The notes beneath the pieces were generated by a model. The model was not told where the DNA came from and did no database searches. It was given only the letters and a program-made list of their open reading frames with translations. Positions 53,843 to 62,678 of a DNA stretch of 64,000 bases are shown here, piece after piece. The stretch comes from Krasilnikovozyma curviuscula (Eukaryota > Basidiomycota > Tremellomycetes > Cystofilobasidiales > Mrakiaceae), in the NCBI GenBank assembly GCA_014825775.1, contig MVAQ01000080.1, forward strand, positions 20,274-84,273, given 5' to 3'. The position numbers were made by a program, and so were the translations under genes. How positions within the stretch are numbered: the first letter of the stretch is position 1; the number at the start of each line of letters is the position of its first letter.

Positions 53843-55421
53843 CTACAACTTGGAAGCTCGTTCTGCTGGTATCGCTTCAACCAGCCTCTGAACGTGCTTT
53901 GCGATACCCCAAGAAGCTTGGAATCCAGCAGGACCGATACCATAGGCATGAACCACACTTCCCTTTGCCCTCTTTTCCGTCTCCACCCTACAGCCATCCT
54001 CTCTGGCAGGCCGTAAGCCAACTTGTGCGCTGACCACCTCGATGCCTTCCCAGCCCCTTTCTGGGTGGGACGAGAGCGCCGGACAGAGCTCGTAGCATTT
54101 TTGGAGGATTCGAGTGGTCACAGCTGCATCTGGCTTCGTGTCGTAGCTATTGATGGTGAAGGTTCCGCCCAGGACAATGTGTCGGTAGTCGTTTGTTGAC
54201 GTTGAGCCGGTTGGTGATGGACGAGGGATTATGTCTGTTGGTGCAAAAGCAGAATCAACAGATAAAATAAATAATGAACAACGAAAGAGAAAAAGAAGTT
54301 GTGGAGAAGTCAGTAAGGATGAAACTGATAATAGTCGCCGTGCCGACACTGACAGTTTGGTACAGATTCCGTCTCGTCTCCTGGATGAGCTTCAACCTTC
54401 ATGTAGCAAGTATTAACTCCCTTAGCACGCACCACTAACGTTTGACCAGCGATAGGGAAAACCTAAAGCACAGAAAGAAATTAGATTAGTTTTCTACAGA
54501 CGCTGATAAGTTGACAGAACGCCCTTACGGTCTCATCTCTCACACCGCCCAACCACCTTGCTCCCAATCCCGTAGCATTGACAACTACACCACCCCTCCC
54601 AATGAAAAGATCGTCAATGTGCTTAACCTCCCTCTTTTCCATCAACACACCAGCCGCAAACAGCTGGCCGGAGAGGTATTTGATATAGTTGGCTGCCCAG
54701 ACGGTGAAGGATTTGTACGCGATTCCTTCTTTGCAGTTGAAGGCTTTTGCTTCGTTGGATTTGAGGATGCGGAACTTGAATCAAACACATGAAGCGGAGA
54801 AAACCGATTTACTGTCAGAAAACCGGAAGTGGAACGGCGGACGAGAGGGAAAAAAGAACTCACCTCTGGAACGAAATTCTTGAACCAAGGAATTGGATCA
54901 TGTTTACTATCCCACACGTCTCTGAATGGGATCATCTAGCGGATGAATATTGCCTTGTCAGTCAAAGCACATAAACGCAGGAGGGGGCTACATGGCTCAC
55001 CTGCACGATGTCAGGACGAGTTTTGGTCAACTCAGTCCACATTGCAAAGGTATCTTTATCCCATTGAATCTGACGGCCCGCCGCAATTAGAGGAAATACC
55101 ATCAGGAAAGGAATTGAAGCAAGCAAAATAAAAAAAGACTCACCCCTTTACCACCCTCAGGTTCAAATGAACACCAATTGGCGCCAGCCCATGGAGAAGC
55201 AAAGCCGGTTGACTTGTCATCTTCAGGTAAGTCTCTGGCGACGATTTTGAGGTTGGTATATCCCTCTCTGTGCAAATTCAGAGCAATTGAAAGACCTGTA
55301 ACGAATGAGCCATCGTAGTCAGCAAGCAGATTGAGGAATCACAGTAGATCATCTTGCTGTACCTAACACTCCACTACCCAAAACAGTAATGGGAGTATCC
55401 TTCGGTGTCGAGGAAGGCATT
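53843..55421 (-). CDS. D-amino-acid oxidase, peroxisomal (PTS1)
   Basis: FAD enzyme that oxidises D-amino acids to 2-oxo acids, ammonia and hydrogen peroxide. The start (ATG 55421) gives MPSSTPKDTPITVLGSGVLG, the G-x-G-x-x-G dinucleotide-binding motif, split by an intron after its last residue. Further motifs: ASPWAGANWCSF (the DAO/DASPO signature), GGVVVNATGLGARWLGG, FPIAGQTLVVRAKGVN, YIIPRPSP and HAYGIGPAGFQASWG, which is the C-terminal FAD loop with the substrate-binding region. The protein ends in ASKL, a canonical peroxisomal targeting signal. About 380 residues with five or more introns. It could alternatively prefer D-aspartate; the substrate-discriminating residues were not assigned. 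It is in tandem with the decarboxylase gene upstream (395 bp between stop and start). Confidence 0.93.
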
Positions 55422-55816
55422 GCAGATATTGTTTAATGGTCTTGGTTAGGGATGCCTGTGAGAGGTGGCGCTTGATCTGGGATGAACTGCCGCGACAGTC
55501 GAGGGACGGCGTCTCAGCAAGTCAAGCCACGGTCTTTATACTCTTGCCTTTCGGCCAACATTCGTGAGATTACCAGAATGCGTCCGAATTCAACGGATGG
55601 GTTACATTACTTCAAGCAGATTGGGCAAACCCCACCACTTAACCCCACTGATAAACCCCACTATTTCTTTCTGCGCCGAGTTCGTCGCTTTTTTGGTCGT
55701 TGGGTTCGTTGACCTCAACAAGTCACCACAACGTCTTTCCAGATGCTACACTTCAAATAAGACCAGAGACTTATAAATAATAGCACCAAAACGGCAACCC
55801 AGATAATAAAAACAAT
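55422..55816. promoter_or_regulatory. Promoter region of the D-amino-acid oxidase gene
   Basis: 395 bp between the DAO start and the decarboxylase stop. No coding signal. No element was identified with confidence. Confidence 0.4.
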
Positions 55817-59498: not shown

Positions 59499-60227
59499 AT
59501 GTATTTCGCCTTAGAATATCAATTTCGTCTAAGGGTTACAAGGGGGGATTTTATCTGTTTTCTAAGTGGGATGATTGCGAACAAGGTATCATAAGAAGCT
59601 CAACGCACACTCAACAATTCATTGACAACGTCTGCGCGAGGAGACGCCCCCCAAGTTCTTCCAAGTGAAACTTTTGAATTCATATTGGAGGACGTTATAC
59701 TATGATTGCATCTTGTAGCTCAACTGGACTCTAGTTCTCAGAGGCTGATATCGTTGTGGCACCAATATTTCTTATTTTCCGTGTCTTGAGCCTCATGGCG
59801 GCAGTTTTTAATTTCTTACACTCTACCTCAGGCCAACCAACGATATATCGGAAAAGTGCCGGCGCGATTTCGCTTGAAGTAAAAGAAGAAGAGCGGTCGA
59901 GCGAGGTTCGAAGAATGCCGTCGTGGCGTCATAACACTGGTGTGAAAGAGATTGGTTAGTTGTATTGTAGTATTTCAGTATTATTTGACAGCAGTTCCAA
60001 CGGTGTTTAATTCCCACCTAATTTAGACCTCTATTCTACACTTCTCTTGTGCTTCAAGCACTTTTTCGTCGAGATTCGCTGAAAAGACGGTGTTTCAAAT
60101 TTTCTTGTATTTTGTTTTGGGTTGCGCTTGAATACCGTGCGTTTTCCAACCGATATCCATATAAACCAGGACTCTGATCACCTGGTGGTCGGTCCCAGCA
60201 AATCACCAGGTCTCATCTTTTCCCACA
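59499..60227. promoter_or_regulatory. Intergenic: 3' flank of dipeptidase and promoter of the permease
   Basis: About 730 bp. One short plus-strand frame (59756-59959) has no support. The permease promoter should lie in 59900-60220. Confidence 0.4.
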
Positions 60228-62678
60228 ATGTCCACCGAAAAGAAGGAATTGGACGAATCCACCCCTGTGGAAGTCGGTTATGGCGAAAAGACCGACGACC
60301 TCACTCGAATTGAGAGTGTCGACTCGTTGGCCATGAAGCAGCTCGCTGAGGGTGAAGCTGTCGAGCAGAATGCCTTGCCAATCATCGAATACAGCGAAGA
60401 AGAGAACAGGAAGGTCAGAAGAAAGATTGATATGGTCGTTTTGCCGCTGTAAGATTTTTCTCACCTAGTGCTGTTTACATCCGCAAGTAAGATGCTAATG
60501 CCTCACATATGGTACTTGCCTGTCACAGCATGTGTCTCGTTTACGCTTTACAATACGTTGTAAGCATACCCTTCCCTATTTCCAACCCCCTACGCTGAAG
60601 GGGATATGGATCCTGACTTTGCATCCGTCTACTTTTTCTCAGGATCGATCTGCTATGGGTTACGCTGCCATCTTCACCTTCATCAAAGACACCCATATTA
60701 CCACCGATGAATATGCCTGGTTGGGATCCATCTACAACTTTGGGTAAGCAAATATTCCGCTCGCTCGGATTGACATCATGAGTCACTGGCGCTAAGACCT
60801 TTGTTCTCGTTTAAATCAGTTACCTTGTAATTGAATTCCCTGGTGCTTACTTGCTTCAAAAAATGTCCATCTCCAAGTCTCTCTCTATCCTCGTCGGTGT
60901 CTGGGGTATTCTCGTAAGTTGTCGCAACTCGCTGTCTCGTTTTGTGGCCAGGAGAACTCCAAAGCTGATCCTTCTGGCCTTCTGTCTCATTCTTGCATCT
61001 TCCTACCGCAAAACGTAGCTGATGTGTATGGCTATTCCAAGAAGCTTTGCTGGTCTCGCCGTTATTCGTTTCCTCCTTGGAGGAGCCGAATCCCTTGTAT
61101 CTCCAGGCTTCGTTTTGCTCAACGCCAGATTTTACACAGCTGCCGAACAACCATTGAGGTATGTTCAAATTAGTTCATTCATTTTCTGCTCGTGTACTGG
61201 TACTGACAGCTCATCTTTCAACAACTAGGATCGGTATCTGGTACGGGTGTCAAGGTGTTGGATCGCTCGTCGGATCGTTGGTCTCCTATGGTATGGGCAG
61301 TCTCAAGCATACTCCAAATAAAATGCCAACCTGGACGTGAGTCCACTCTCTCTCCCTCCTCCTTTAGATATCCTCCCGGCTCGAGTACTGACGCGCTGGC
61401 TGTACTATCAGGTTCATCTTCCTCCTCAACGGGGCTATCACATTCATCGGTGGTGTTGTCTGCTTCATCTTTATGCCTGAATCACCAACCACCTCCCGTT
61501 TCTTAACCCCACACGAGAAGAGAATCGCTATCGAGCGTGTCAGAGGAAACAAGTCTTCCCTCTCAAACAAGACCATCAAGTGGTCCCAGGTTTACGAAGC
61601 CATCAGTAAGCTCTTTATCTTAATATTTTGAATCTGTGAAAAATGATACTTACAAACTTCCTTGTTCTAATTTCTATCTGTAGACCCATTCATTGACCCA
61701 CAAGGTTGGCTCTTCGTCCTCTCCATGTGGTGTCTCTGTATTCCAAACGGGGGTGTCGCCAACTTCCAGAAGCTCATTCTCAAGTCTTACGGTTTCTCCA
61801 GTCTGGAGACGATCTTGGTTGGTATCCCAACCTGTTTCCTCCAGGTCGTCTTCCCACTGTCTGCTGGCTTCGTCGCAAGAAAGTACAAGAACGCTAAAGT
61901 AAGTTCTTTGTAGTTATCCAATTTTGTTTCAGCATCATTAGTTATCTTGACGTGCTGACGCTCAATGTTTTGTGATTGCGCACTAAGATTTTTGTCATGA
62001 TGGGCTGGTCTCTACCATCTCTTATCGGTTTCGCCTTCCAATACGCTGTCAAGATCAATGGAGTGAAATTGTGGGGATATTACATGGTAAGCGCCCTCAT
62101 TTTCCTGTGCCATTGAATAGCGGGGCTTGTTATTTCGAGCCCGTTCGACGTCAACGCTTCGCCTAGTGTCTGACCATGGCCTGTTTACCACAGATGACCT
62201 CTTATGTCGCTACCATCTCTCTTATTTTCGGTATGACCGCTTCCAATATTGCTGGGTACACCAAGAAGGTAGCCATCTCTTCGATGATCTTCATTGCCTA
62301 CGCGTCTGGTGAGTGTAGCTTTCACTGTTCCACGCTCATTCATATTCTTACTAATTTGAGTCTTGCAGGCAACATTGCTGGTCCTCATCTCTTCATTTCA
62401 ACTGAGAAAATTCCATACAAGACTGGTATGGAGTCGTCCATGATCTGCTTCTGCTTCCTCATGGTCTTCCTCGCCTTGCTAAGGTAAGTTTCTGCATAAG
62501 TCCTCCATATTCGCTTTACTGAAGATCCCTCTTTCGTAACCTTTAGACTCCACTACATGCGAGAGAACGCTAGACGTGACAAGATCCTCGCTGACAGAGG
62601 AGAGACATACGATCCAAACGGAGGTGACTTCGCGGATCTTACTGATTGCGAAAACATGCACTTCAGATACAAGCTGTA
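60228..62678 (+). CDS. MFS transporter, Dal5 / anion:cation symporter family
   Basis: Plasma-membrane permease of the group containing yeast Dal5 (allantoate, ureidosuccinate and dipeptide uptake), Tna1 and Fen2. Start ATG 60228 in CACAATGTCC. An acidic cytosolic N-terminus (about 70 residues, ending KVRRKIDMVVLPL) leads into twelve predicted membrane segments split by about ten introns. Family marks: DRSAMGYAAIF after TM1, YLVIEFPGAYLLQK, RFLLGGAESLVSPGF (the A-E-S-x-x-x-P-G-F motif), ERPLR-like AAEQPLRIGIWYGCQG, FMPESPTTSRFLTPHEK, and YTKKVAISSM...NIAGPHLF in TM11. The C-terminus ends HFRYKL. Substrate cannot be told from sequence. It is codirectional with the dipeptidase, with a 730-bp gap. 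Confidence 0.9.

What the first reader, a model, noticed from the sequence alone, without database searches (positions are those of the whole stretch)
53843..62678. Candidate catabolic cluster for peptides with D- and alpha,alpha-dialkyl amino acids
Four adjacent genes encode steps that fit one pathway: a signal-peptide dipeptidase of the M19 family (whose known members accept C-terminal D-residues), a Dal5-type permease (some members import dipeptides), a 2,2-dialkylglycine decarboxylase (for Aib or isovaline) and a peroxisomal D-amino-acid oxidase. The orientation is two genes minus and two plus around a short shared promoter. The surrounding genes are unrelated housekeeping genes. Aib and D-residues occur together in peptaibiotics made by other fungi, so the cluster could let this fungus feed on, or disarm, such peptides. 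The domain calls are visible in sequence and family reactions are established; the joint pathway is inference.
Basis: partly seen in the sequence, partly recalled or inferred. Interest (0 to 1): 0.78.

Follow-up and report, generated by a model that had tools for sequence, protein, structure and literature searches.

The report
Fungal cluster for aminoisobutyrate peptide catabolism
Four neighbouring genes in a yeast-like fungus look like a small toolkit for breaking down peptides that hold odd amino acids such as aminoisobutyrate; part of the pairing recurs elsewhere, and the peptide-cutting enzyme carries a tag expected to keep it inside the endoplasmic reticulum rather than release it.

Summary
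Spliced models give a D-amino-acid oxidase (ends SKL), a dialkylglycine decarboxylase (DGD), an M19 dipeptidase and an MFS permease, two genes on each strand around a 284-base shared promoter. Chance adjacency is unlikely: on contig C95 of the same genome a second DGD again lies beside an M19, with a Zn2Cys6 regulator and a related permease; on C27 a third M19 lies near a regulator and a permease. The three M19s are 50-57% identical, against 87% for the two DGDs, so this is unlikely to be one recent copied block. In Cryptococcus sp. DSM 104549 the orthologous M19 and a DGD carry locus tags two apart. No NRPS condensation domain was found, so substrates are probably foreign. DGD clusters for aminoisobutyrate are known in Saccharomyces (PMC10169451). 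This is a new basidiomycete variant; the joint peptide pathway remains inference.

The parts
53843..55420 (-). D-amino-acid oxidase, 7 exons (55363-55420, 55144-55295, 55001-55069, 54864-54935, 54529-54774, 54354-54462, 53843-54234), 365 aa, C-terminal SKL
   Evidence: PF01266 6.1e-27; 1c0i 2.5e-58
55421..55816 (.). DAO upstream region with CCCCACT at 55643 and 55656; candidate motif only, not enriched in the genome in its longer form
55817..57470 (-). 2,2-dialkylglycine decarboxylase (DGD-A), 5 exons (57342-57470, 57184-57245, 56508-57094, 56174-56442, 55817-56110), 446 aa
   Evidence: PF00202 1.8e-89; 1d7r 1.1e-181, one alignment through all exons; active site
57471..57754 (.). shared divergent promoter of DGD-A and M19-A, 284 bases between start codons
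57616..57630 (+). CTGGCCGGCCGGTTT; a 15-base pattern made from this and the DGD-B site has no third match in the genome (reversed control 0)
57755..59498 (+). M19 dipeptidase with hydrophobic N-terminus and C-terminal RDEL (M19-A), 7 exons (57755-57909, 57972-58072, 58135-58215, 58293-58396, 58459-58577, 58646-59353, 59420-59498), 448 aa
   Evidence: (PF01244 4.1e-95)
60228..62679 (+). MFS permease of the anion:cation symporter (TC 2.A.1.14) kind, 12 exons, 521 aa
   Evidence: PF07690 7.3e-32; TIGR00893 '2A0114' 6.3e-52, 176.8 bits, under its cut-off of 395

Best explanation
A catabolic gene cluster for small peptides that carry alpha,alpha-dialkyl residues (Aib, isovaline) and D-residues. Proposed route: the permease moves a dipeptide or related anion across a membrane; the M19 enzyme, held in the ER lumen by its RDEL tail, cuts dipeptides whose C-terminal residue ordinary peptidases refuse; cytosolic DGD turns Aib into acetone and CO2 and puts its nitrogen on pyruvate as L-alanine; peroxisomal DAO turns D-residues into keto acids and ammonia. 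Shown here: gene structures, families, intact active-site motifs, recurrent DGD-M19 and M19-permease pairing, conserved xDEL tails, no condensation domain found. Inferred: the substrate, the order of steps, co-regulation, how substrate meets an ER-luminal enzyme, and that DAO belongs to the module.
For: DGD identity and active site. A yeast DGD was shown to use Aib, give acetone and feed nitrogen through alanine (PMC10169451: abstract, passages, Results part 2 of 3, Discussion part 1 of 2). Second DGD+M19 locus on C95 with a Zn2Cys6/Fungal_trans regulator and an ACS-kind permease. Third M19 locus on C27 with a zinc-finger/Fungal_trans regulator and a permease found by its match to this one. 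The three M19s are different lineages at 50-57% identity while DGD-A/B are 87% identical. A shared 15-base pattern at the two DGD promoters (made from those sites, and the genes are copies). Dal5 (TC 2.A.1.14.4) carries dipeptides (PMC8625066 passages). No condensation domain found in the genome.
Against: ER retention separates the peptidase from cytosolic DGD and from outside peptides; a luminal entry route is missing. The permeases of the three loci are distant from each other and their substrates unknown. No DAO match on C95 or C27 and no DGD match on C27. Capronia coronata, the third of three species named in both lists, has its M19 and DGD on different contigs. In Saccharomyces, deleting the permease gene of the DGD cluster had no phenotype and Gap1 takes up Aib.
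Confidence: 0.5

Rival explanations
1. Broad nitrogen scavenging. DGD handles free Aib, DAO handles free D-amino acids, and M19 cuts ordinary or bacterial wall-type dipeptides such as L-Ala-D-Ala; the genes share a neighbourhood because all respond to poor nitrogen, not because they act on one kind of peptide.
For: Free Aib is a nitrogen source and a toxin for yeasts with DGD1 (PMC10169451). The third locus has M19 and permease but no DGD. DAO only at the window's locus.
Against: DGD is paired with an xDEL M19 at both of its copies and, by locus tags, in a second species, which generic nitrogen control does not predict.
Confidence: 0.25
2. The ER-luminal M19 does a housekeeping or detoxification job (for example Cys-Gly or conjugate cleavage, recalled for mammalian DPEP1), and DGD is only a neighbour.
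For: xDEL M19s occur across Asco- and Basidiomycota; the neighbourhoods of these other genes were not examined. The ER lumen suits such a role.
Against: Repeated DGD, regulator and permease neighbours in this genome.
Confidence: 0.17
3. Chance adjacency.
For: The set was noticed because it looked coherent; DAO is unconfirmed elsewhere; Capronia coronata does not show the linkage.
Against: Approximate odds of 1e-3 per DGD-M19 pair, and for M19-permease pairs 2e-5 (three of three) or 9e-5 (three of four); pairing in another species.
Confidence: 0.05
4. A biosynthetic cluster in which M19 acts like GliJ of gliotoxin synthesis.
For: GliJ is among the best structural relatives of the M19.
Against: No condensation domain found in the genome, while 4 of 14 control genomes gave a match; the M19 has a signal-like N-terminus and xDEL.
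Confidence: 0.03

Closest known systems
Saccharomyces uvarum/kudriavzevii/eubayanus DGD1-DGD2-AAP subtelomeric cluster (PMC10169451)
   Same: DGD gene with a permease gene in the cluster; Zn2Cys6 regulator with DGD, as at our C95 locus; proposed peptaibol link
   Different: The word dipeptidase does not occur in the main text; permease is a putative amino-acid permease; no regulator lies between the window's cluster and its flanking genes
Bacterial 2,2-dialkylglycine decarboxylase (PDB 1d7r; B. cepacia, recalled)
   Same: 607 bits over residues 11-435, ten of ten active-site positions checked identical to Burkholderiales rows
   Different: Gene with four introns, in a cluster with M19 and permease
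M19 membrane dipeptidases: DPEP1/renal dipeptidase and GliJ (organisms recalled)
   Same: Domain family and metal-ligand motifs
   Different: Ends in RDEL, in a fungal clade that nearly always ends in xDEL; DPEP1 is GPI-anchored at the cell surface (recalled)
Yeast Dal5 (TC 2.A.1.14.4, PMC8625066)
   Same: Best NCBIfam match of our permease is the 2A0114 model, the same broad transporter family; Dal5 takes dipeptides
   Different: Not compared by sequence here; match is under the model's cut-off; substrate unknown
D-amino acid oxidase PDB 1c0i (Rhodotorula, recalled)
   Same: Same family, active-site Arg and first Tyr aligned and conserved (residue roles recalled)
   Different: Position equal to the second active-site Tyr is Phe in this protein

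Membership tests
2,2-dialkylglycine decarboxylase | Closer to known DGD than to any other class-III aminotransferase | tested here: met
   607 bits against 231 for the next enzyme kind
2,2-dialkylglycine decarboxylase | Catalytic Lys and DGD active-site residues | tested here: met
   QWMSDQKYTR, identical to the Pandoraea and Paraburkholderia rows; site list recalled
2,2-dialkylglycine decarboxylase | Aib to acetone and CO2 in vitro | not testable with these tools
   -
M19 dipeptidase | Peptidase_M19 domain and metal-ligand motifs | tested here: met
   which residues bind metal is recalled
M19 dipeptidase | Cleavage of dipeptides with C-terminal D or dialkyl residue | not testable with these tools
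   -
ER-resident xDEL protein | Hydrophobic N-terminus plus conserved terminal xDEL | tested here: met
   56 of the 58 best hits, 58 of 120 listed, control 0 of 231 DGD-type proteins
ER-resident xDEL protein | The fungus uses such tails on its own ER proteins | tested here: inconclusive
   2 of 12 thioredoxin-domain loci have a downstream open frame ending RDEL or HDEL (not spliced to the domain); 0 of 10 HSP70 loci
ER-resident xDEL protein | Observed in the ER | not testable with these tools
   -
Peroxisomal D-amino acid oxidase | DAO domain, active-site Arg/Tyr, PTS1 | tested here: met
   one active-site Tyr is Phe; location not tested
Dal5 subfamily | Sequence clustering with Dal5 | not tested
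   no Dal5 sequence at hand; TIGR00893 hit 176.8 bits, under the 395 cut-off
Saccharomyces-type DGD cluster | Zn2Cys6 regulator beside DGD | tested here: not met
   none between the flanking genes of the window's cluster; present at the paralogous C95 locus (Zn_clus 17.1 bits under its cut-off of 21, Fungal_trans 62.5 over 23)
Conserved gene cluster | DGD-M19 adjacency outside this locus | tested here: met
   C95; Cryptococcus sp. DSM 104549 by locus tags only; Capronia coronata not
Conserved gene cluster | All four genes together elsewhere | tested here: not met
   no DAO match on C95 or C27; other species not searchable for context

The most novel reading that the evidence does not exclude
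Fungi have a widespread, overlooked class of ER-luminal M19 dipeptidases, and in this lineage it has been recruited repeatedly, three times with an ACS-kind permease and twice with a DGD, into clusters that take apart antibiotic peptides inside the endomembrane system, the permease feeding or emptying that lumen.
Probability: 0.25. Interest if true: 0.75.

Novelty: new variant of a known kind. Interest (0 to 1): 0.52.

Why it matters
It would show how soil and mycoparasitic fungi feed on, or survive, protease-resistant antibiotics of competitors, and give a testable set of genes for that trait in basidiomycetes. The xDEL tails raise a separate question: why fungi keep a dipeptidase in the ER lumen, a place not usually credited with peptide catabolism.

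Tried and rejected
A separate bacterial origin for DGD-A/B: the nearest named hits are bacterial (best hit P0121, 68%, has no name), but in the trees DGD-A/B sit on the branch between bacteria and all fungi sampled, and grouping them with the Kwoniella/Cryptococcus/Naematelia DGDs is not rejected, barely (p-AU 0.051). An N-terminal MPA-x-T start in 4 of those 5 rows, and Trp at position 138 in 5 of 5 (also in bacteria and mushroom rows), fit that grouping. I claim no transfer.

A shared regulator motif CCCCACTATWTS at the DAO-A, M19-C and PERM-C promoters: 8 sites in the genome against 10 for the reversed control, and the pattern was made from those three sites; kept only as a lead. CGG-type half-site patterns gave nothing clear.

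Bacterial context of DGD: the scan gave 5 loci, one close DGD at 59%; too few, not pursued. Papers: no hits for dipeptidase with HDEL, DGD with Cryptococcus, DGD with dipeptidase and gene cluster, M19 with D-amino acid and fungi; two peptaibol/Aib searches listed only PMC10169451 as directly relevant. These searches cover open-licence papers only.

Segmental duplication as the cause of the two DGD loci: DGD copies are 87% identical but M19-A and B 56-57%, and gene orientation differs. A block copy with much faster M19 change is not excluded.

It also said other xDEL M19 mostly lack a DGD neighbour; that was not examined.
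Full report
What is there. The region was read base by base and four gene models were built by hand and joined in a script; all introns are GT-AG and no model has an internal stop. From left to right: DAO (-), DGD (-), M19 (+), permease (+). DGD and M19 are head to head with 284 bases between their start codons; DAO starts 396 bases beyond the end of DGD. The DGD model aligns to a bacterial DGD in one piece from residue 11 to 435, which supports its exon joins. 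Flanking genes are an importin-like gene and a Ras-family GTPase. The window is contig C366 bases 20274-84273 of a 22.4-Mb assembly in 387 contigs, and it ends where the contig ends. Its M19 is closest to Kwoniella, Cryptococcus and Tremella proteins (64-69%), so the fungus is a member of Tremellales or close to it (inference).

The enzymes. DGD matches 1d7r at 607 bits, other class-III enzymes at 231 or less; the ten active-site positions checked are all intact (the list of sites is recalled). DAO matches 1c0i (2.5e-58), ends in SKL, keeps Met at the position that is Arg in acidic-substrate oxidases (recalled) and has Phe for one active-site Tyr. M19 matches Dipeptidase 1 and GliJ with all metal motifs. 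The permease is an MFS protein whose best NCBIfam match is the 2A0114 model, under its cut-off; no close solved structure exists. Nothing here fixes its substrate.

Recurrence in the same genome. Searches with the four proteins found a second DGD, 87% identical, on contig C95. It lies tail to tail with another M19 and next to a Zn2Cys6/Fungal_trans regulator (the Zn_clus hit, 17.1 bits, is under Pfam's cut-off of 21; the six-Cys pattern is plain by eye), then a permease of the same kind. On the far side of that M19 are a GMC oxidoreductase ending in SKL and an alpha/beta hydrolase. A third M19 on C27 is followed by a regulator (Fungal_trans 41 bits, over its cut-off; C2H2 finger 24.7 bits, just under 25.2) and a permease found by its match to the window's one. 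A fourth M19 on C22 belongs to another clade, with only a weak permease match 24 kb away. The 75 matches reduce to 40 permease loci, so a permease within 5.6 kb is expected about 0.03 times per M19; three of three is about 2e-5 and three of four about 9e-5 (post hoc, approximate, uniform placement). The M19 tree puts A, B and C on different branches, so the DGD copies sit beside different M19 lineages. A 15-base pattern made from the two DGD promoters occurs nowhere else in the genome; as the genes are copies, common descent may explain it.

Another species. The M19 homolog list and a list of fungal DGDs found with a Tremella/Apiotrichum profile, each capped at 120 rows and not all named, share three named species. 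In Cryptococcus sp. DSM 104549 the M19-A ortholog (clade support 100/99) is IAT38_003049 and the DGD is IAT38_003051, both with contig length 4459873. In Tremella mesenterica both proteins have scaffold length 2017597. In Capronia coronata the contigs differ. That locus tags run in gene order is assumed, not checked; three M19 tags of the first species are listed, the other two (001890, 005111) far away. The Cryptococcus and Tremella DGDs are not close to DGD-A (about 62-64%) and fall in other groups of the tree.

The ER signal. M19-A ends in RDEL. Of the 58 best homologs 56 end in xDEL (of all 120 listed, 58: 41 HDEL, 8 RDEL, 6 KDEL, one each ADEL, VDEL, IDEL); of 231 DGD-type proteins none do. 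Many of the lower 62 are, by length and name, fragments or mushroom proteins without the tail. A crude hydropathy test on proteins of 385 aa or more gave 33 with both signal-like start and xDEL, 13 with xDEL only, 9 with start only and 35 with neither; several xDEL-only entries look like models that lack their first exon. Two members of the clade, P0049 and P0079, lack both, as expected if the two signals work together. The own paralogs end in RDEL (C95) and KDEL (C27). Of 12 thioredoxin-domain loci of this genome, 2 have a downstream open frame ending in RDEL or HDEL (not spliced to the domain); none of 10 HSP70 loci showed one.

What it most likely does. In Saccharomyces, DGD1 turns Aib into acetone and feeds alanine, DGD2 is its Zn2Cys6-type inducer, and deleting the third gene, a permease, gave no phenotype; the authors point to peptaibols as a source of Aib (PMC10169451: abstract, passages, Results part 2 of 3, Discussion part 1 of 2). 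The present loci look like a basidiomycete counterpart that adds a dipeptidase. M19 enzymes accept C-terminal D-residues (recalled), so cutting X-Aib and X-D dipeptides is plausible, and some fungal peptides hold both Aib and D-residues (recalled). No condensation domain was found in this genome, so such peptides would come from others. DAO's membership rests on adjacency at one locus.

Limits.

Noticed in passing
G000 contig C27: L064 1168 to L030 2105, L030 about 2560 to L065 about 2710, L065 3676 to L056 about 1830: M19 ending KDEL, zinc-finger/Fungal_trans regulator and a permease in a row; the permease model has one in-frame stop near its end that may be a missed intron. Start positions by eye.
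   Followed up: partly
G000 contig C95: L093 197-1150, L093 1774 to L027 862: Alpha/beta hydrolase and a GMC oxidoreductase ending SKL next to the second M19-DGD pair; may belong to that cluster.
   Followed up: partly
L019 1-1221 (contig C44 end): DAO copy, about 50-64% identical by exon, with one in-frame stop in the aligned model and cut by the contig end; a piece of DAO also lies at the start of contig C128.
   Followed up: no
window 55643, 55656; L064 984, 999; L065 3292, 3452: CCCCACT repeats upstream of DAO-A, M19-C and PERM-C; the longer form is not enriched in the genome.
   Followed up: partly
P0001-P0058 (homolog list): xDEL tail conserved across Asco- and Basidiomycota M19 dipeptidases; two searches of the open-licence library found no paper on it.
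   Followed up: partly
P0049, P0079: Members of the xDEL clade that lack both signal-like start and xDEL: possible cytosolic offshoot.
   Followed up: no
DGD rows: 4 of 4 Ascomycota rows and 4 of 4 rows of one Tremellomycetes group have Tyr where bacterial DGD has Trp138; this may shift substrate range.
   Followed up: no
window 37276-39888: Long ORF (870 aa, minus strand) that by eye reads like a GEN1/Yen1-type resolvase; not tested.
   Followed up: no
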